From Aureimonas sp. SK2 (lineage in GTDB: Bacteria > Pseudomonadota > Alphaproteobacteria > Rhizobiales > Rhizobiaceae), in contig NZ_JAPZDS010000014.1 in NCBI RefSeq assembly GCF_029813115.1, forward strand, positions 1-64,000: a stretch of 64,000 bases of DNA. The letters are read 5' to 3'. The notes under the pieces are model-generated. The model was not told the origin of the DNA, did no database searches, and worked only from the letters and a program-made list of their open reading frames with translations. How positions within the stretch are numbered: position 1 is the stretch's first letter; every line of letters starts with the position of its first letter. Position numbers and translations under genes: made by a program. This document shows positions 14,332-22,463 of the stretch, in pieces.

Positions 14332-14859
14332 ATGGCCAAGACCAGATCCAGCATCCGCCGCACGGCGTCCGCCCTTCTCTTCGCGGGCGTCGCCCTCGCG
14401 GTCGCCCCCGCCGCGTCCGAGGCCCACGAGTTCAAGGTCGGCTCCATCGCGATCGATCATCCCTGGAGCCGCGCCACGCCGCCGGGTGCCAAGACGGGCG
14501 CGGGCTACTTCGCCTTGTCGAACGCCGGCCCGGAGGCCGACCGTCTCGTCTCGGCCGCCTCGCCGGTCGCCCGGAAGGTCGAGGTCCACGAGATGAAGAT
14601 CGTCGACGGCGTCATGAGCATGAAGCCGGTCGAGGGCGGCCTCGAGATCCCCGCGGGCGGCGATGTCGCGCTCGCGCCCGGCGGCTACCACCTCATGATG
14701 ATGGGCATCGAGGAGCCCTTCAAGGAAGGCACGATGGTTCCTCTGACGCTGGTGTTCGAGAAGGCCGGCTCCGTCGAGGTGGAGCTCGAGGTCGGCTCGA
14801 TGGGTGCCAAGGCGCCCGCGCACGGCCACGGCGCAGGGGAGGAAGCGCACGCGCACTGA
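14332..14859 (+). CDS. Periplasmic copper chaperone PCuAC
   Basis: 175 aa. The ATG follows CGGAGG (14321-14326). A signal peptide (SALLFAGVALAVAPAASEA) precedes AHEFKVGSIAIDHPWSRATPPG, the PCuAC start. The Cu(I) site motif is intact: HEM near residue 87, further methionines MSMKP, and HLMMMG near 125. A His-rich tail (HGHGAGEEAHAH) may bind extra metal. PCuAC delivers copper to the CuA/CuB centres of cytochrome oxidase with SCO, which is encoded two genes downstream. The 263 bases upstream show no gene. Confidence 0.88.
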   Translation: MAKTRSSIRRTASALLFAGVALAVAPAASEAHEFKVGSIAIDHPWSRATPPGAKTGAGYFALSNAGPEADRLVSAASPVARKVEVHEMKIVDGVMSMKPVEGGLEIPAGGDVALAPGGYHLMMMGIEEPFKEGTMVPLTLVFEKAGSVEVELEVGSMGAKAPAHGHGAGEEAHAH

Positions 14860-14890
14860 TGCGTGCGCCTGCGCGAGACAGCGTGAGCCC

Positions 14891-14911
14891 TGCCCCGACG
14901 GGGTCGGGGCA
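14891..14911 (+). terminator. Hairpin between PCuAC and CopCD genes
   Basis: Perfect 9-base arms TGCCCCGAC and GTCGGGGCA around a GGG loop. There is no U-tract, so it is more likely an mRNA-processing or attenuating stem than a full terminator. Confidence 0.4.
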
Positions 14912-14948
14912 CCGCCGCCCGCGCGGGATCTGAACGACGAGGCGCCGC

Positions 14949-16550
14949 ATGACCGGACGAGCAACCTTTCGAGATGTCCTTTTCGGCCTCCTCGCCCTGA
15001 TCGGCGCGTGGGTCATGGGCATCTCGGCGGCTGGCGCCCATGCGGGCCTCGTTTCCACCAACCCGGCCGACGGCGCCGTTCTCGACGCCGCGCCGTCGCG
15101 CTACGTGCTGTCATTCAGCGAGCCCGTCTCACCGCTCCGCGTCTCCCTGGTCGCGCCCGACGGCTCCCGCCGCGACCTGTCCGGTGCGAGCCTCTCCGGC
15201 AGCACGCTGAGCGTTCCCGCGCCCGCCGGTGCGGCGGCCGGTACGCATGTCCTGTCCTGGCGCGTCGTCTCAGCGGACGGCCATCCCGTTGCCGGCTCGC
15301 TCGCCTTTTCCATCGGCGCCCCGAGCGCGATGCCGGCCGCCACCACGGCCGATGACGGAAGCGTTCGAGCCCTGATCTGGATGTCGCGCATCGCCCTCTA
15401 TGCCGGGCTCTTCTTCGGCGTGGGCGGCGCGGCCGGCCTTCTTGCGGCATCCGGCCCTTCCGGCCGCGCGCCGAGGCTGGTCCGGACGGTCCTGGCGCTG
15501 GGCCTTGCCGCAGCGCCCGTCGCGCTGCTCGGCCAGGGCCTCGACGCGCTCGGCGCGCCGCTCGCGGCCTTTGCCGATCCCCACGTTTGGCGGGCGGGCG
15601 CGGGGACAAGTTTCGCCGCGACGCTTGCCCTCGCCGCGATCTCCATGGCGACCGCCCTGCTCGCTTCGTCGGTCGCCGGCCGGAGGACCGCCGCCGGTCT
15701 TTGCGCCGCCGCGCTTCTCGGTGCCGGGCTGGCGCTTGCGGCCAGCGGCCACGCGGCGAACGCCTCGCCGCAATGGCTGACGCGGCCGGCGGTCGCCGTT
15801 CACGCTCTTGCCGTCGCCCTGTGGATCGGCGCCCTTGTGCCGCTCGCCGCCTCGCTGGGCGGCGACGGCCTGGGCGGCGCTTCGGCGCTCCGGTGCTTCT
15901 CGCGGCGCATGCCCATCGTCGTGGCCGCGCTCCTGGCGTCGGGCACGGTGCTGGCGATCGTTCAGGTCGGTGCCGTCGCGGCTCTCGGGACCACGGCCTA
16001 TGGGCGCGTCCTGCTGGCGAAGCTCCTCTTGGTCGCGCTGCTCCTTTCGCTCGCGGCCTTGAACCGCCGGCGCCTGACCCCGTCGGTGCTCCGGGGCCTC
16101 CCCTCGGCGGCGATTGCCATGCGGCGGGTGATCCTCGCCGAGATCGGCGTCGCCGTCCTCATCCTTTCGACGGCGGCGCTCTGGCGCTTCACGCCCCCGC
16201 CGCGCGTCGAGGCGGCGATCGCGGCCGAGCCCGCCGTCGCCCATGCGACGGGTCGCGGCCTCATGGCCGACATAACCCTCTCGCCGGGACGGGCGGGACG
16301 GGTGAGCGCGCAGGCGACGCTGTTCACGATCGACTACGGCCCCGTCGCGCCGACCTCCGTCGCCTTCGTGTTCGAGCCGGCGGCCGGCGGGATCGATCCG
16401 ATCCGGCGGATCGCCGAAAACCGCAGCGACGGCATCTGGCGGGCCGAGACCTCACTGCCCGTGCCGGGCACGTGGACCGTGAAGGTTGAGGTCCTGGCGG
16501 ACGGCCTCCCGCCGGAGCGCATCAAAACCACGATCGACCTGCGTCCCTGA
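14949..16550 (+). CDS. CopC-CopD fusion copper protein
   Basis: 533 aa. The signal peptide ends at SAAGA and mature CopC begins HAGLVSTNPADGAVL, placing His at the N-terminus where CopC binds Cu(II); DGHPVAGSLAFSI near residue 110 holds the second His. Residues about 145-415 form eight hydrophobic helices of CopD (PF05425; RPAVAVHALAVALWIGALV). A soluble C-terminal beta domain of about 110 residues follows. The protein should bind periplasmic copper and pass it across or into the inner membrane. It lies between PCuAC and SCO. Confidence 0.88.
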   Translation: MTGRATFRDVLFGLLALIGAWVMGISAAGAHAGLVSTNPADGAVLDAAPSRYVLSFSEPVSPLRVSLVAPDGSRRDLSGASLSGSTLSVPAPAGAAAGTHVLSWRVVSADGHPVAGSLAFSIGAPSAMPAATTADDGSVRALIWMSRIALYAGLFFGVGGAAGLLAASGPSGRAPRLVRTVLALGLAAAPVALLGQGLDALGAPLAAFADPHVWRAGAGTSFAATLALAAISMATALLASSVAGRRTAAGLCAAALLGAGLALAASGHAANASPQWLTRPAVAVHALAVALWIGALVPLAASLGGDGLGGASALRCFSRRMPIVVAALLASGTVLAIVQVGAVAALGTTAYGRVLLAKLLLVALLLSLAALNRRRLTPSVLRGLPSAAIAMRRVILAEIGVAVLILSTAALWRFTPPPRVEAAIAAEPAVAHATGRGLMADITLSPGRAGRVSAQATLFTIDYGPVAPTSVAFVFEPAAGGIDPIRRIAENRSDGIWRAETSLPVPGTWTVKVEVLADGLPPERIKTTIDLRP

Positions 16551-16586
16551 CGCACCGAACGGCATTCGAACCGGAAGGGAGTACCG

Positions 16587-17198
16587 ATGGCCTCCACCAC
16601 CCAAGCCAACCGCATGCTCGCGATCGGAGGGATCGTGGCGCTTCTCGGCATCCTCTTCGCCGCCATCGGCTTCGTCGTGGTCGGGCAGGCGGAGCACACC
16701 GCCGTCAAGCGGCCCTTCGAACTGGTCGACACCCATGGGCGGACCGTGACCGAGGACGTGTTCCGGGGCCGTCCGTCGCTGGTCTATTTCGGCTACACCA
16801 ACTGCCCGGAGGTCTGTCCAACCACGCTGATGGAGATGGCGGACTGGCTGGGCGAGCTGGGGCCGGCGGGAGACGAAATCCAGGCGCTCTTCTTCACGAT
16901 CGACCCCGAACGCGACACGCCGGACGTCATGGCGCCCTATGTCGCCTCGATCTCCGACCGGATCGTCGGGGTGACGGGCAGCGCGGAGGAGATGCGCAAA
17001 GCGTCGCAGGCCTGGCTGGTCGTGGCGCGCAAGGACGGTGACGGCGGCAACTACCACTTGCGGCATACGACGTCGCTCCTCATGGTCGGCAGCGACGGGC
17101 GCCTCAAGGGCCTTATACCCTACGGCGCGGCCCGCGAGGAGGCGATCGACAAGATCCGGCAGGTGCTGTTGCGGGCGGGGCCTGACCGACAATCCTGA
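16587..17198 (+). CDS. SCO1/SenC family copper metallochaperone
   Basis: 203 aa. One N-terminal membrane anchor (residues about 10-33) is followed by a thioredoxin fold. The copper ligands are present: Cys73 and Cys77 in TNCPEVCPTT, and His160 in the LRHTTSLLMVG segment. It inserts copper into, or reduces, the CuA site of cytochrome c oxidase. It is the last plus-strand gene of the copper cluster and meets the pseudoazurin gene tail to tail with a 21-bp gap. Confidence 0.92.
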   Translation: MASTTQANRMLAIGGIVALLGILFAAIGFVVVGQAEHTAVKRPFELVDTHGRTVTEDVFRGRPSLVYFGYTNCPEVCPTTLMEMADWLGELGPAGDEIQALFFTIDPERDTPDVMAPYVASISDRIVGVTGSAEEMRKASQAWLVVARKDGDGGNYHLRHTTSLLMVGSDGRLKGLIPYGAAREEAIDKIRQVLLRAGPDRQS

Positions 17199-17219: not shown

Positions 17220-17669
17220 CTATTGCGGTGCCGCGTCGAGGCCCGCGCGGCCCATGATGTCCTCGAACCGCTTCCGGGCGCGGGCGGGAAGCGCCGGATC
17301 GACCAGCCCGTCCGGCGCGGCCGCCTCGCCGACCTTGACCAGCATCACCATGCCCATGCCGAGATGGGGCGAGCACTTGATGCCGTAGAATCCGGCATGC
17401 TCGAAGGTAACCGCGATCTCCTCGTCGATCCGGCCCTTGAACGGGGTCGCCCCCGTCGGCGCCATCGTGTCGATGGAGGCGGCGTTGTGGCTCCGGCTGC
17501 CGACGCGGAACCGGAGCGTGTCGCCGGGCGCGAGCTCGACATAATCGGGCTCGAAGACCATGGAGCCCTGCTCGCCGCGGTTCAGCATCCGCACCTCGAC
17601 CGTCTCGCCGCGAGCGACGCCAGTGGTGAGAAGAAGGGCGGCGGCAAGGCGGATCGGCATCCTCGTCAT
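17220..17669 (-). CDS. Pseudoazurin (type 1 blue copper protein)
   Basis: 149 aa with a 21-residue signal peptide ending VARG. In the mature protein the four copper ligands fall at the canonical pseudoazurin positions: His40 (SHNAAS), Cys78, His81 and Met86 (CSPHLGMGM). It is a small periplasmic electron carrier, classically donor to nitrite or nitrous oxide reductase or cytochrome peroxidase. The ATG overlaps the btuD stop as ATGA (17666-17669), so it is the last gene of the riboswitch-led B12 operon. No denitrification genes are in the window. The coupling to B12 uptake is unusual. Confidence 0.92.
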   Translation of the reverse strand: MTRMPIRLAAALLLTTGVARGETVEVRMLNRGEQGSMVFEPDYVELAPGDTLRFRVGSRSHNAASIDTMAPTGATPFKGRIDEEIAVTFEHAGFYGIKCSPHLGMGMVMLVKVGEAAAPDGLVDPALPARARKRFEDIMGRAGLDAAPQ

Positions 17670-18454
17670 GCGCGGGCCTCCATCGCGGCTAGGTCCGGCG
17701 GGGCGAAGCGGATGAAGGGACGCTCGCCGGGGCCGGCCTCGACGCTCGCGGCCACCTTGAAGACGGCGGCGATCCGCTCGGGGGTCAGAACCTCCGACGG
17801 CGTTCCCAGGGCGACGAGCCGCCCGCCCTGCATCACCGCGATCCGGTCGGCGAACATGGCGGCGTGGTTGAGATCGTGGAGGGCCGCGAGCACCGTGCCG
17901 CCGCGCCGACGCACGAGCGCCAGGAGGCCGAGCTGGTGCTCGACGTCGAGGTGATTGGTCGGCTCGTCCAGGATCAGAATCTCTGGCTCCTGCGCGAGGG
18001 CGCGCGCGATATGGAGGCGCTGCCGCTCGCCGCCGGAAAGCGAGTGCCACAGGCGATCGGCGAAGGGCGCCATGTCGACGGCCGCGAGCGCCCGGGCGAC
18101 GATGGCCTCGTCGCGTTCGCCCCAGGGCGACAGGGCGCCGAGATGGGGCGTGCGCCCGAGCTCCACGGCCTGGCGGGCGGTCAGCCTTTCGCCCGTCTCG
18201 GCCTGCTGCTCCACAAGGGCGAGCGCGCGGGCGAGGTCGCGGCGCGAAAGGCCGGTGATGGGTCGCCTATCCAGCGTCACCGTCCCGCCATGAGGGCGTT
18301 TCAGCCCCGCCAGCATCGCGATCAGCGTCGTCTTGCCCGATCCGTTGGGGCCGACGATGCCGAGGAACTCGGCCGGCCGGGTCTCCAGCGAGACGCCGTC
18401 CACGACCGCCCGCCCGCCGGCCCGCCAGGTGAGGTTCTCCGCCGCCAGCCTCAC
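17666..18454 (-). CDS. btuD: Cobalamin ABC transporter ATP-binding protein
   Basis: 262 aa FecCD-class ATPase: Walker A GPNGSGKTT near residue 35, Q-loop VEQQ near 81, signature LSGGERQR near 138, Walker B ILILDEPTNHLD near 157 and H-loop ALHDLNHA near 192. The start is a GTG overlapping the permease stop (GTGA, 18451-18454). Sequence alone cannot separate B12 from siderophore ATPases; the cobalamin riboswitch upstream decides the call. Confidence 0.88.
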   Translation of the reverse strand: MRLAAENLTWRAGGRAVVDGVSLETRPAEFLGIVGPNGSGKTTLIAMLAGLKRPHGGTVTLDRRPITGLSRRDLARALALVEQQAETGERLTARQAVELGRTPHLGALSPWGERDEAIVARALAAVDMAPFADRLWHSLSGGERQRLHIARALAQEPEILILDEPTNHLDVEHQLGLLALVRRRGGTVLAALHDLNHAAMFADRIAVMQGGRLVALGTPSEVLTPERIAAVFKVAASVEAGPGERPFIRFAPPDLAAMEARA

Positions 18455-19491
18455 CGCGCGCCCCCCGCGACCGGACGGTGGATCAGGATCAGCGCGAAGG
18501 CCGGGGCGCCGACCAGCGCGGTCATCACCCCGATCGGGAGGACTTGGCCGGGGATGACGGTGCGCGACAGGACGTCGGCGGCGATCATGAACAGGGCGCC
18601 GATCAGCGCGGAGGCGGGAAGGAGCGCGCCGTGGCGCACGCCGACGACGAGCCGCGCGGCATGGGGAATCACGAGGCCGACGAAGCCGATCGAGCCGACG
18701 ATCGAGACCATGACCGCCGTCATCAGCGCCGTCGCGCCGATCAGGACCGCGCGCACCCGCCGCACCGGCACGCCGAGTGCCGCGGCCGAGGCGGTGCCGA
18801 AGGCGAAGGCATCGAGTGAGCGGGCGTGGAGGAGGCAGACCGCGAGGCCCGCGAGCGCCACGGGCACGGCGAGCGCGGCGTCCGGCCAGCGCACGCCCGA
18901 CAGGTTGCCGAGCAGCCAGAACATGATGCCCCGCGCCTGATCGGCGGTGGCGGACTTGGTGACGACGAAGGAGGTGAGGGCGTTGAAGAGCTGCGAGCCC
19001 GCGATGCCGGCCAGGATGATCGCCGCAGGCCCCCTGCCCGCCAGGACCGCCAGACCGGAGACGAGGACGAAGGCGAGGAGCGCGCCGGCCAGCGCGCCGA
19101 GCGGCAGCGACAGGAGCCCGCCACCGAGGCCGAGGATCGCCACCGCCACCGCACCCGACGACGCACCCGCCGAGATGCCGAGGAGATAGGGATCGGCCAG
19201 CGGATTGCGCAGCAGCGACTGAAGGACCGCGCCGGAGACGGCGAGCGCCGCGCCGCAGGCGCTCGCTACCACCGCCCGCGACAGGCGGTAGTTCCAGACG
19301 ATGCCCTCGTCGATCGGGTCGAGGGCGTGACCGCCGTGCCAGAGGCGGTTGGCGATCGTGCCCGCGACCGTGTCGAACGGGATCCGCGTCTCCCCCACCG
19401 CCGCCCCGAAAAGCAGGGCGGCGAGGAGGAGGCCAATCGCCATCAGGGCGAACCCGGCGGCGCGCGCCGGGCGAGCGGCGGCCCGGCTCAC
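18451..19491 (-). CDS. btuC: Cobalamin ABC transporter permease (FecCD family)
   Basis: 346 aa with about ten membrane segments. Family marks include YRLSRAVVASACGAALAVSG, RNPLADPYLLGISAGASSGA near residue 95 and IGFVGLVIPHAARL near 272. The GTG start at 19491 gives a GTGA overlap with btuF and begins MSRAAARPARAAG ahead of the first helix. It forms the inner-membrane channel with BtuD. Confidence 0.9.
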   Translation of the reverse strand: MSRAAARPARAAGFALMAIGLLLAALLFGAAVGETRIPFDTVAGTIANRLWHGGHALDPIDEGIVWNYRLSRAVVASACGAALAVSGAVLQSLLRNPLADPYLLGISAGASSGAVAVAILGLGGGLLSLPLGALAGALLAFVLVSGLAVLAGRGPAAIILAGIAGSQLFNALTSFVVTKSATADQARGIMFWLLGNLSGVRWPDAALAVPVALAGLAVCLLHARSLDAFAFGTASAAALGVPVRRVRAVLIGATALMTAVMVSIVGSIGFVGLVIPHAARLVVGVRHGALLPASALIGALFMIAADVLSRTVIPGQVLPIGVMTALVGAPAFALILIHRPVAGGAR

Positions 19492-20507
19492 TGGGCGAGG
19501 CCGGCCTTGCCGAGCGCGTCGGCCAGAACCTCGATGCCGTCGATCGTTCGGATCGTCGGGTTCATCGCTTGGGCGTCCATCTCGACGACGCGCCCCTCCC
19601 GCACGGCGGGCATCAGGCTGGCGACGGGGTCCGTCTTCAGGAACTCGAGCTTCACCGCGATGTCGTCGGCCGGGAAGCGGCGGCGGTCCATCCTGCCGGC
19701 GACGATCACCGTCGGGTTCGCGCGCGCGATCGTTTCCCAGCCGACGGTCGGCCACTCCTCCTGGCTGTCGATAACGTTCGTCAGGCCGAGAAGCGACATG
19801 ATGTAGCCCGGCGCCCCGCCCTGCCCCGCGACGTAAGGATCGATGTCGAGCTCGGCCGAGGAGAACCAGAACACGGCCGAAGTGCCCTCCTTCAGCCCCG
19901 CGATCCTGGCCTTGGCCGCCGTCTCGCGTGCCTTCAGCTCCGTGACGAGTTCGGCGCCCTTGTCCTGGACGTCGAAGATGCGCGCGAGATCCTCGACCTC
20001 CTGGTAGACGAGGTCCATGGTGAAACGGGCCGTGCGCGTGCCGTCGCCGCCGGCCGAATTGTCCTTGCCCTGGCAGTCGGCGGGCGAGGTGTAGACGGGG
20101 ATGCCGAGATCGGCGAACTGCTCGGGCGTCGCCACGACGCCCTGCGGTCCGACCTGCCATTCGAACTGCGTGGTGACGAGGTCGGGGCGCTCGGCCACCA
20201 CGCTTTCGAAGCTCGGATCGTTGTCGGCGAGGCGCTTCACCCTGGCATTCGCCTCCTCGTAGCCCGGCAACACGGGGCCGACCCAGAGGGCGGTTCCGGC
20301 CACCTTCTCCGACAGGCCGAGAAGGTACAGGATCTCGGTGGTCGACTGTCCGATGGAGACGGCGCGCGACGGCGCCTTCTCGAAGGTGAGCGTGCGGCCG
20401 CAGCTCTCCAGCGTCAGCGGGTACTGCGTCGGAGCGGCATGGGCGTCCCCAGCGGACAGGGCGATCACGAAAAGACCGAGGAGGGCGGGACGGCGGAAGG
20501 ATGGCAT
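19488..20507 (-). CDS. btuF: Cobalamin ABC transporter, periplasmic binding protein
   Basis: 339 aa class III binding protein. The signal peptide is MPSFRRPALLGLFVIALSAG with cleavage near DAHA. The body has RAVSIGQSTTEILYLLGL near residue 55, AERPDLVTTQFEW near 110 and a C-terminal AMNPTIRTIDGIEVLADAL. Longer than E. coli BtuF and closer to alphaproteobacterial putative F420/B12/iron-type binding proteins, so the ligand call rests on the upstream cobalamin riboswitch. The ATG at 20507 sits at the signal peptide; upstream in-frame codons are Arg-rich and unlikely. Confidence 0.85.
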   Translation of the reverse strand: MPSFRRPALLGLFVIALSAGDAHAAPTQYPLTLESCGRTLTFEKAPSRAVSIGQSTTEILYLLGLSEKVAGTALWVGPVLPGYEEANARVKRLADNDPSFESVVAERPDLVTTQFEWQVGPQGVVATPEQFADLGIPVYTSPADCQGKDNSAGGDGTRTARFTMDLVYQEVEDLARIFDVQDKGAELVTELKARETAAKARIAGLKEGTSAVFWFSSAELDIDPYVAGQGGAPGYIMSLLGLTNVIDSQEEWPTVGWETIARANPTVIVAGRMDRRRFPADDIAVKLEFLKTDPVASLMPAVREGRVVEMDAQAMNPTIRTIDGIEVLADALGKAGLAQ

Positions 20508-20601
20508 GGACGGATTCCTATAGGGACGGGCACGACTTCGCTTTGCCGCGGCGTGCGACTTGGTCGGTCCGGTCGAATGGGATCGAGACGAGCGTGGCGC
20601 C

Positions 20602-20679
20602 TTAACGGCGCGTGGGCGCTCGCAGGCGGAATGCAAAGAGGGGAGTGTGGGCGCGAAGGCGCCGGAGATCGGCCGTCAT
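20602..20679 (-). CDS. Possible leader peptide ORF between riboswitch and btuF
   Basis: A 25-codon frame, MTADLRRLRAHTPLFA and so on to an Arg-rich end, starts 45 nt past the riboswitch 3' edge. AAAGGA lies 5 bases upstream of the ATG. It resembles no known family. It could be a translated uORF that tunes btuF expression, or chance. Confidence 0.22.
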   Translation of the reverse strand: MTADLRRLRAHTPLFAFRLRAPTRR

Positions 20680-20724
20680 GGACATCCTTTCCGGGCATCC
20701 CCGCCCGAACGTTACGGATTGATC

Positions 20725-20978
20725 GCTGACGGCAGGTCTCCTGGCTCGCGGAACTTCGCGCCGATCATCTGCCTTCCCATGTCGGCCCCTTAAGAGCCTT
20801 CGCAGTGGCATGGCGCCGGGCAAATCCGGCGGCCCGCCGCGCCCGTCCGTGGACCAGCGCGGGGATGATCGGCATCCGCTTACAGTTGCGGGGGCAGCCA
20901 CGGTCTCGGCCCCGATTGGGTCGTCCTCACCGTGTTCCCTTTTAATCCCCCAGGCTCGTCGCCTGGGGAAACCGTCGC
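20725..20978 (-). promoter_or_regulatory. Cobalamin (AdoCbl) riboswitch
   Basis: Reading the minus strand, the class's conserved blocks appear in order: a P2-like hairpin CCCCAGGC/GCCTGGGG; AAAAGGGAACACGGTG; GCCCCCGCAACTGTAAGCGG; GCCACTG; GGGAAGGC; and the B12 box AGCCAGGAGACCTGCC. The outer P1 stem can form between GCGACGG (20972-20978) and CCGTC near 20728-20732. When cobalamin binds, this RNA turns off downstream expression. It leads btuF-btuC-btuD-pseudoazurin and is the best evidence that the transporter carries B12. Confidence 0.96.
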
Positions 20979-21048
20979 GGCCTGCTTACGCGGAAGGACG
21001 GGTCGTCGTCAATCCGATGCGCCGGCCTGCGGGGCGGCGGCGGCGCCG

Positions 21049-21824: not shown

Positions 21825-22463
21825 ATGCACAACGTCTTCGAGAGCCCCTTCAAGGGCATCACGCTCGATCGCCTCGTCACCAACCCGAACATCCGGGTCG
21901 GGCGCTACAGCTACTATTCCGGCTACTACCACGGTCACGGCTTCGACGAATGCGCCCGCTTCCTCCTGCCGGACGAAGGGGTGGACAAGCTCGTCATCGG
22001 TTCGTTCTGCTCGATCGGCTCCGGGGCAGCCTTCATCATGGCCGGGAACCAGGGGCACCGGAACGACTGGATCAGCACCTTCCCCTTCTTCTGGATGTCG
22101 GACGTTCCCACGTTCGCCGGCGCGGAGAACGGCTATCGCCCTGCCGGCGATACCGTGATCGGCAACGACGTCTGGATCGGGACCGAAGCCGTCGTCATGC
22201 CGGGCGTCACGATCGGGGACGGCGCGGTGATCGGCACGCGGGCGCTGGTGACGCGGGACGTCGACCCCTACGCCATCGTCGGCGGCAATCCCGCCCGCAC
22301 GATCCGCCGACGCTTCGGCGAGGCCGACATCACCAGGCTTCTCGAAATGCGCTGGTGGGACTGGAGCGACGAGGAGCTGAAGCGCGCGATGCCCCTTCTG
22401 ACGAGCGGCGACGTGGCGGCCCTTCACCGCCACTGGCGGACGGTGGTGGCACCGGCGGACTGA
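21825..22463 (+). CDS. catB: Type B (xenobiotic) chloramphenicol O-acetyltransferase
   Basis: 212 aa left-handed beta-helix enzyme. The N-terminus [19 protein letters not shown], the motif [16 protein letters not shown] near residue 27, the loop [12 protein letters not shown] carrying the catalytic His near residue 79, and [19 protein letters not shown] near 109 are close to CatB/VatD-type sequences. It would acetylate chloramphenicol using acetyl-CoA. It is chromosomal with no mobile element beside it, so it is probably an intrinsic gene. The ATG follows an upstream region shared with the divergent GNAT gene. Confidence 0.92.

What the first reader, a model, noticed from the sequence alone, without database searches (positions are those of the whole stretch)
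17220..20978. A blue copper protein sits under a cobalamin riboswitch, translationally coupled to btuD
Seen: a complete cobalamin riboswitch (20725-20978), btuF-btuC-btuD joined by GTGA overlaps, then pseudoazurin whose ATG overlaps the btuD stop (ATGA). The pseudoazurin ligands His40, Cys78, His81 and Met86 are intact. Known: B12 riboswitches normally control B12 uptake or synthesis, or B12-independent enzymes. Inference: the electron carrier is made when B12 is scarce, perhaps to reduce Co(III) corrinoids in the periplasm, or to serve a B12-free pathway.
Basis: partly seen in the sequence, partly recalled or inferred. Interest (0 to 1): 0.78.

Follow-up and report, generated by a model that had tools for sequence, protein, structure and literature searches.

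The report
Blue copper protein in B12 operon
In many soil and plant-associated bacteria a small copper electron carrier is the last gene of a transporter operon that sits behind a vitamin B12 switch, which suggests that it helps to bring in the vitamin or its cobalt rather than serving respiration.

Summary
A cobalamin riboswitch (RF00174, 77 bits) precedes a three-gene BtuFCD/FecBCD-type importer, and a pseudoazurin with all four copper ligands starts inside the ATPase stop codon (ATGA). The arrangement is conserved: 34 of the 80 best relatives of the binding protein carry the same pseudoazurin type behind it, and 8 of 8 of these scanned have the riboswitch. It recurs on plasmids of Rhodobacterales, Roseomonas and Comamonadaceae. 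On a tree of 110 pseudoazurins the operon copies plus one stray form one clade (99/91). The window genome has no other pseudoazurin and no NosZ. A second pseudoazurin clade ends FecBCD-type operons where no B12 riboswitch was found; an Actinobacillus operon of similar order is reported as raised at protein level in iron starvation. Best reading: a dedicated periplasmic redox accessory of a cobalt-chelate or corrinoid importer, made when B12 is scarce. Shared regulation is well supported by comparison, not by experiment; Co(III) reduction is inferred. "btuFCD" is too specific: curated BtuF, BtuC and BtuD cut-offs are missed and the substrate is unproven. The pseudoazurin is also often absent (46 of 80). 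In 66 of 74 leaders a ribosome-binding site and short ORF stand at a fixed place after the riboswitch.

The parts
20714..20990 (-). cobalamin riboswitch aptamer (RF00174)
   Evidence: cmscan 77.0 bits, gathering 31.5; one of two found in the genome
20689..20709 (-). P13-like hairpin with a G-rich loop able to pair with the CCCC of loop L5; its 3' strand abuts the uORF Shine-Dalgarno
   Evidence: read; the hairpin is in the predicted fold; the names P13 and L5 and their pairing are recalled and inferred
20602..20679 (-). short leader ORF (25 codons) with Shine-Dalgarno GGAAAGGA
   Evidence: ATG with SD 55-75 nt after the B12 box in 66 of 74 leaders; peptide not conserved
   Evidence: PF01497 142.7 bits; EitA 325.7 bits, cut-off 640; AF2 model pLDDT 92.5, nearest solved structure 4mlz
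18451..19491 (-). FecCD-type permease ('btuC')
   Evidence: PF01032 281.7 bits
17666..18454 (-). ABC ATPase ('btuD')
   Evidence: PF00005 119.2 bits
17677..17681 (-). GGAGG, likely ribosome-binding site for pseudoazurin, inside the ATPase gene
   Evidence: sequence at the junction
17220..17669 (-). pseudoazurin, a type-1 copper protein with a signal-like N-terminus
   Evidence: TIGR02375 116.1 bits; PDB pseudoazurins E 1.7e-29; model pLDDT 89.9, best match 3paz; the signal peptide is read by eye

Best explanation
The operon is a B12-starvation module. When adenosylcobalamin is plentiful the riboswitch blocks the leader; when it is scarce the binding protein, permease, ATPase and pseudoazurin are made together. 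The pseudoazurin is a dedicated periplasmic accessory of this importer, not a denitrification carrier. Most likely it passes single electrons to or from the cobalt of the captured corrinoid or cobalt chelate, for instance turning inert Co(III) into labile Co(II), so that it can be bound, stripped or passed on. Shown: riboswitch, overlaps, copper ligands, conservation, separate clade. Inferred: co-transcription, regulation, partnership with the binding protein, and the redox step.
For: 34 of 80 relatives carry this pseudoazurin behind the importer, with overlap or a 2-nt gap in 33 of the 33 that keep the ATPase. The riboswitch stands before the binding protein in 8 of 8 such loci scanned and in 8 of 8 such plasmid loci scanned. 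12 of 14 annotated plasmid regions opened around pseudoazurin hits have the cassette. In a tree of 110 pseudoazurins the 43 operon copies plus L114 are one clade, 99/91. The window genome has one pseudoazurin over the cut-off and no NosZ over it. L018 keeps riboswitch, binding protein and pseudoazurin with an ATGA overlap and no permease or ATPase between; its genome has a full importer with its own riboswitch elsewhere. A second pseudoazurin clade (L123, L124, L159; 100/85) ends FecCD-type importers where no cobalamin riboswitch was found. An Actinobacillus operon of binding protein, permease, ATPase, pseudoazurin, binding protein and glutathione synthetase is listed with proteome log2 changes of 2.98, 2.93, 1.49, 2.38, 2.38 and 0.91 under iron starvation (PMC12507848, passages and part of one section). 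Further riboswitches in relatives lie upstream of metE and class Ib ribonucleotide reductase genes. All four copper ligands are kept in 43 of 43 operon copies.
Against: No expression, uptake or redox data exist here for this operon. The operon type is absent behind the importer in 46 of 80 relatives; on the best binding-protein tree its presence changes 17 times (5 forced by well supported branches; shuffled mean 29.7), so the importer evidently works without it. The substrate is unproven; curated BtuF, BtuC, BtuD, EitA, EitC and F420-0 cut-offs are all missed. L114 carries a pseudoazurin of the operon clade away from any importer, and ten of the 40 listed plasmid hits are Roseomonas records like it, of which only this one was opened. 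In the iron-starvation paper the transcripts of that operon fell (pseudoazurin -1.85) while its proteins rose. The predicted fold of the leader pairs the start codon of the short ORF with the 3' end of the aptamer, which does not plainly fit the switching logic proposed.
Confidence: 0.45

Rival explanations
1. N2O link: N2O destroys B12, the riboswitch senses it, and pseudoazurin is made to feed nitrous oxide reductase NosZ.
For: Pseudoazurin is a known periplasmic carrier for denitrification, and N2O modulates B12-riboswitch genes in Paracoccus denitrificans (PMC5987163, passages). NosZ over cut-off occurs in 10 of 27 sampled genomes with the operon type against 4 of 23 without.
Against: 17 of 27 sampled genomes with the operon type, the window genome included, show no NosZ over the cut-off. 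23 of the 27 have a further pseudoazurin over the cut-off elsewhere. The operon type has Asp46 in place of the classical Lys46 (31 of 35 against 29 of 32).
Confidence: 0.1
2. Copper scavenger: the cupredoxin binds periplasmic copper that would otherwise occupy the cobalt chelate or the binding protein.
For: Cupredoxins bind copper tightly (general knowledge). Copper genes lie near the operon in the window (PCuAC, CopCD, SCO1), in L029 (PCuAC) and in L035 (PCuAC, CopCD).
Against: Such neighbours were found in only 2 of the 88 relatives searched. The full four-ligand site with Met86 is kept in 43 of 43 copies, which plain storage would not need.
Confidence: 0.15
3. Electron carrier for a B12-independent pathway that replaces a B12 enzyme during starvation.
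For: Genes downstream of neighbouring B12 riboswitches in relatives are metE and class Ib ribonucleotide reductase genes.
Against: The gene is coupled to the importer rather than to those enzymes, and no periplasmic B12-free enzyme is in the operon. A similar coupling exists in importer operons where no riboswitch was found.
Confidence: 0.1
4. Passenger gene: it sits in the operon by chance and inheritance and has no link to the importer.
For: Patchy presence, with repeated gain or loss.
Against: In the copies placed on trees, the clade is found in this operon with one exception, L114. Start codons overlap the ATPase stop, and the gene stays beside the binding protein where permease and ATPase genes are missing.
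Confidence: 0.12

Closest known systems
B12-riboswitch BtuFCD uptake operons
   Same: Cobalamin riboswitch before a binding protein, FecCD-type permease and ATPase
   Different: Can end in a blue copper protein (34 of 80) or a SAM methyltransferase (27 of 80, 12 of them with the copper protein); curated BtuF/C/D cut-offs are not met
Classical pseudoazurin of denitrifiers (NirK/NosZ donor)
   Same: Fold and four copper ligands
   Different: Separate clade; Arg10, Asp46 and Met88 where classical copies mostly have Lys10, Lys46 and Ala/Gly88; a B12-riboswitch operon, as against the nirK neighbour of L118
FetMP (P19/FetP) iron uptake
   Same: A periplasmic protein works with a metal importer; [quoted passage not shown]
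   Different: FetP is not a cupredoxin (recalled) and serves an iron permease of another family
Iron ABC operon with pseudoazurin of Actinobacillus pleuropneumoniae (APPSER1_09785-09810)
   Same: Binding protein, permease, ATPase, pseudoazurin in one operon (PMC12507848, passages and part of one section)
   Different: Listed under iron starvation; 'vitamin B12' and 'cobalamin' do not occur in its main text; its sequences were not fetched, and the like locus L159 falls in the other pseudoazurin clade
Mycobacterium tuberculosis ppe2 B12 riboswitch with translated uORF
   Same: A riboswitch-controlled leader ORF before the gene (PMC11260477, abstract and section list)
   Different: That riboswitch is called a class IIb variant; the class was not determined here. 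Here the uORF start abuts a hairpin and the gene follows a median of about 62 nt after the uORF stop (64 leaders)

Membership tests
Cobalamin riboswitch RF00174 | Covariance-model score over the gathering threshold | tested here: met
   77.0 against 31.5 bits, full model 1-189
Cobalamin riboswitch RF00174 | Switches expression of the operon with adenosylcobalamin | not testable with these tools
   needs in-line probing or a reporter
Pseudoazurin TIGR02375 | Equivalog cut-off 109.85 bits | tested here: met
   116.1 bits
Pseudoazurin TIGR02375 | Type-1 copper ligands His40, Cys78, His81, Met86 | tested here: met
   present in 35 of 35 rhizobial-type copies, the window's among them, and 8 of 8 plasmid operon copies
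Pseudoazurin TIGR02375 | Binds copper and carries electrons | not testable with these tools
   needs purified protein
BtuCDF vitamin B12 importer | Curated BtuF, BtuC, BtuD cut-offs | tested here: not met
   BtuF 21.6 of 234; BtuC 203.4 of 334 and 218.5 of 461; BtuD 124.6 of 281 bits
BtuCDF vitamin B12 importer | FecCD-type importer domains | tested here: met
   PF01497, PF01032, PF00005; structure neighbours include BtuF 5ysc at rank 18, below several heme binders and uncharacterised binding proteins
EitABC siderophore importer | Curated EitA and EitC cut-offs | tested here: not met
   EitA 325.7 of 640; EitC 285.5 of 485 bits
F420-0 ABC importer | Curated TIGR03868/03869/03873 cut-offs | tested here: not met
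   179.1 of 392.4; 294.6 of 437.35; 293.5 of 372.4 bits
B12 riboswitch with translated leader ORF | Conserved start codon and Shine-Dalgarno at a fixed place after the riboswitch | tested here: met
   66 of 74 leaders
B12 riboswitch with translated leader ORF | Leader is translated and this matters for the gene | tested here: inconclusive
   peptide shows no purifying selection in 14 pairs, 26 synonymous codon changes against 34.7 expected; translation itself is not testable here

The most novel reading that the evidence does not exclude
Pseudoazurins are not only denitrification carriers: at least two of their clades are built-in redox partners of FecBCD/BtuCDF-type metal-chelate importers. 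The B12-riboswitch clade uses a blue copper electron to change the oxidation state of cobalt in the periplasm during uptake.
Probability: 0.3. Interest if true: 0.82.

Novelty: new variant of a known kind. Interest (0 to 1): 0.66.

Why it matters
It would give a copper protein a role in B12 or cobalt acquisition, tie copper supply to cobalt nutrition, and help to explain why genomes without NosZ keep a pseudoazurin. It is directly testable in laboratory strains that carry the cassette, such as Rhodobacter capsulatus SB 1003 (plasmid pRCB133) and Sinorhizobium fredii NGR234 (binding protein and pseudoazurin 1.9 kb apart on pNGR234b).

Tried and rejected
NosZ/N2O link: tested by a NosZ search in 50 genomes and rejected as the general role.

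Own promoter for pseudoazurin: a consensus scan found none, but promoters of other types are not covered, so this is weak.

Copper gene cluster as cause: PCuAC, CopCD and SCO1 converge on the operon in the window, but no hit to them was found in the six nearest loci L003-L008; hits came only from L029 and L035.

CobN as a discriminator between cobalt and corrinoid import: 50 of 50 genomes have it, so it does not discriminate.

Binding-protein fold as a guide to the substrate: nearest solved structures are binding proteins of uncharted ligand, then heme, B12 and siderophore binders, so undecided.

Leader peptide as a conserved protein: rejected, no purifying selection. Only equal-length pairs could be compared.

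Limits of the counts. The plasmid regions were opened from hits to the pseudoazurin itself: 14 annotated ones of 40 listed, of 352 records with a match, so they show breadth, not frequency; a fifteenth (L164) had no annotation. Genome-wide counts rest on 50 genomes, 27 loci with pseudoazurin nearby (L039 among them), 22 without, and the window genome. Twenty-nine other pseudoazurin loci from those genomes, plus L039, stand for the classical type, where L039 and L097 are one gene and the program warned of a long branch (L102). In one search the copies called classical do not form one group (6 changes). In an even draw of 299 genomes of the phylum, 32 had a match to the operon-type profile; of the 30 loci fetched only the window shows the B12 cassette, while L154 and L159 have another FecCD-type importer upstream. 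For the leader count 74 of 89 sequences had a B12 box by a fixed pattern within 500 nt; no plasmid leader was among them.

Papers: pseudoazurin with cobalamin riboswitch gave 0 papers, with btuC 0, with B12 riboswitch 2, both denitrification proteomes. Broader searches returned 441, 267, 2,388 and 499 papers, of which only 20, 15, 12 and 10 titles were listed. No listed paper describes this operon. Only open-licence papers are held. Seen: passages of PMC5987163, PMC8390676, PMC2573895, PMC5948670 and PMC10783030; passages and the first part of one section of PMC12507848; abstract and section list of PMC11260477.
Full report
Observation. The window lies in a genome close to Aureimonas (six nearest relatives, five of them named Aureimonas, 83-90% identical in the binding protein). 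On the minus strand a cobalamin riboswitch (20990-20714, 77.0 bits) is followed by a substrate-binding protein, a FecCD-type permease, an ABC ATPase and a pseudoazurin. The genes overlap by GTGA, GTGA and ATGA. A GGAGG stands 7 nt before the pseudoazurin start, inside the ATPase gene. The pseudoazurin passes the curated TIGR02375 cut-off and its best solved relatives are pseudoazurins. The search found one other cobalamin riboswitch in the genome, upstream of a gene that reads as a CbtA-type cobalt transporter (the name is recalled).

Conservation. A scan of one genome per species with the binding protein gave 80 loci, the best of 559 confirmed hits. Of these 80, 34 carry a pseudoazurin of the same type behind the importer, 27 carry a class I SAM methyltransferase there (12 of them together with this pseudoazurin), 30 show neither, one shows the binding protein alone (L067), and one of the methyltransferase loci (L039) continues with a classical pseudoazurin. 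In the 33 loci with the ATPase in front, a pseudoazurin start overlaps the ATPase stop or lies 2 nt after it; the overlap is 4 bases in 24. Rfam confirms the riboswitch before the binding protein in 8 of 8 such loci scanned. On plasmids, 12 of 14 annotated regions opened around pseudoazurin hits show binding protein, permease, ATPase, pseudoazurin: Rhodobacter capsulatus pRCB133, two Cereibacter, Haematobacter, two Paracoccus, Thioclava, Roseomonas marmotae, Ensifer, two Comamonas and Diaphorobacter; two regions (Roseomonas mucosa; Paracoccus sediminicola beside nirK) do not. Twelve further plasmid records of the hit lists have both genes within about 3 kb on one strand (matched by eye). Eight of eight of these plasmid loci scanned have the riboswitch, the two others none. 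Some stand beside cobalamin synthesis genes: cobF and others in Haematobacter, cobO, cobW and cobN in P. yeei, cobN and cobW in Comamonas antarctica.

A separate pseudoazurin. In a tree of 66 rows the 35 rhizobial-type operon copies are one side of a branch with 100/100 support, against 31 rows from other places in the 50 sampled genomes; the program warned of one long branch. With ten plasmid copies added the operon label needs two changes, L114 being the exception. In a wider tree of 110 rows, with copies from an even draw of the phylum, the 43 operon copies plus L114 form one clade (99/91), whose nearest rows are L118, beside nirK, and L131; inside it the 35 have 90/90. All four ligands are kept in 43 of 43 operon copies, while Arg10, Asp46, Ile76 and Met88 mostly set them apart from classical copies with Lys10, Lys46, Val76 and Ala/Gly88. 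In the window genome it is the only pseudoazurin over the cut-off; 23 of 27 sampled genomes with the operon type have at least one more. NosZ is over the cut-off in 10 of 27 genomes with the operon type and 4 of 23 without it, and not in the window genome. A denitrification role is therefore not the general explanation.

Link to the importer. In contig L018 (Brucella tritici isolate) the riboswitch, the binding protein and the pseudoazurin remain with an ATGA overlap, and no permease or ATPase stands between them. The same genome has a second binding protein with permease, ATPase and riboswitch elsewhere. This points to the binding protein as the partner. Another pseudoazurin clade (L123, L124, L159; 100/85) stands right behind FecCD-type permease and ATPase genes; in L124 its start again overlaps the ATPase stop by four bases. 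No cobalamin riboswitch was found in these loci, although L159 is short. L154, of unsure place in the tree, also follows such genes, and there a riboswitch lies after the pseudoazurin. A published table lists an Actinobacillus operon of binding protein, permease, ATPase, pseudoazurin, binding protein and glutathione synthetase with proteome log2 changes of 2.98, 2.93, 1.49, 2.38, 2.38 and 0.91 in iron starvation, although its transcripts fell or hardly changed (PMC12507848). L159 has a glutathione-synthetase-type ATP-grasp gene after the pseudoazurin as well (PF02955). The recurring theme is thus a blue copper protein with a metal-chelate importer, with the trigger varying.

Against. Presence is patchy: 46 of 80 loci lack the operon type. 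On the best binding-protein tree of 89 rows the label changes 17 times, 5 of them forced by well supported branches, against 29.7 in shuffles. L076 seems to hold only a decayed remnant. The importer can evidently work without the pseudoazurin. L114 shows that a member of the clade can live elsewhere.

Regulation. Relatives carry further B12 riboswitches beside the operon, upstream of metE (L011), class Ib ribonucleotide reductase nrdE (L034) and nrdI (L028), so the operon lies among B12-starvation genes there. The window genome encodes the B12-dependent reductase NrdJ and CobN; CobN is over its cut-off in 50 of 50 sampled genomes. Just after the aptamer the window has a P13-like hairpin whose G-rich loop can pair with CCCC of loop L5, and then a Shine-Dalgarno and a 25-codon ORF that ends 94 nt before the binding protein. 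An ATG with such a site stands 55-75 nt after the B12 box in 66 of 74 leaders, against 0 to 8 of 74 in other 20-nt bins. The peptide is not conserved (26 synonymous codon changes in 14 pairs, 34.7 expected, 96.7% of draws as high or higher). The inferred logic is that bound B12 hides this start site, and that translation of the leader, not its product, decides whether the operon is read. The predicted fold of 20640-20760 alone also pairs the start codon of the short ORF with the 3' end of the aptamer (z -2.70), so which structure acts is open.

Mechanism. The most likely role is a one-electron exchange with cobalt in the periplasm. Blue copper proteins have potentials that could suit aquocobalamin and some Co(III) chelates (recalled chemistry, not tested). 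The substrate is open: CobN is present in every sampled genome, and an OprD-type porin follows the pseudoazurin in three Comamonadaceae plasmids, which would suit a smaller solute. The best known parallel in function is FetP/P19, whose copper site is needed for iron transport according to a title seen in a reference list.

Novelty. The searches named in Tried and rejected listed no description of this operon. Riboswitch, importer and pseudoazurin are known kinds; their stable union is a new variant, and the possible general role of pseudoazurin in metal-chelate import is the part that would surprise specialists.

Noticed in passing
window 20602-20679 and 73 relatives' leaders: A Shine-Dalgarno and start codon of a short ORF sit at a fixed distance after the B12 box in 66 of 74 leaders, while the encoded peptide is not conserved.
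   Followed up: partly
L011:11267-12058 and 26 further loci of the 80; also L113:7363-8151: A class I SAM methyltransferase (Methyltransf_11) recurs behind the importer or the pseudoazurin; it has weak, sub-cut-off similarity to UbiE and to corrinoid protein-associated methyltransferase CpaM. In the window genome only a 40% relative was found, elsewhere.
   Followed up: partly
L123, L124, L154, L159: Other pseudoazurins stand behind other FecCD-type importer genes; three of the four form their own clade.
   Followed up: partly
L039:11648-12182: A classical pseudoazurin stands behind importer and methyltransferase, perhaps a separate recruitment into the same kind of operon.
   Followed up: no
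L076:7270-7580: What looks like a decayed pseudoazurin follows the ATPase.
   Followed up: no
window 14332-17198 (+); L029 and L035: PCuAC (PF04314, 144.1 bits), CopCD and SCO1 genes converge on the operon in the window; PCuAC lies downstream in L029 and L035 and CopCD in L035.
   Followed up: partly
window 21825-22463 (+): A type B chloramphenicol O-acetyltransferase (CatB) family gene passes its curated cut-off, 381.4 of 350 bits.
   Followed up: no
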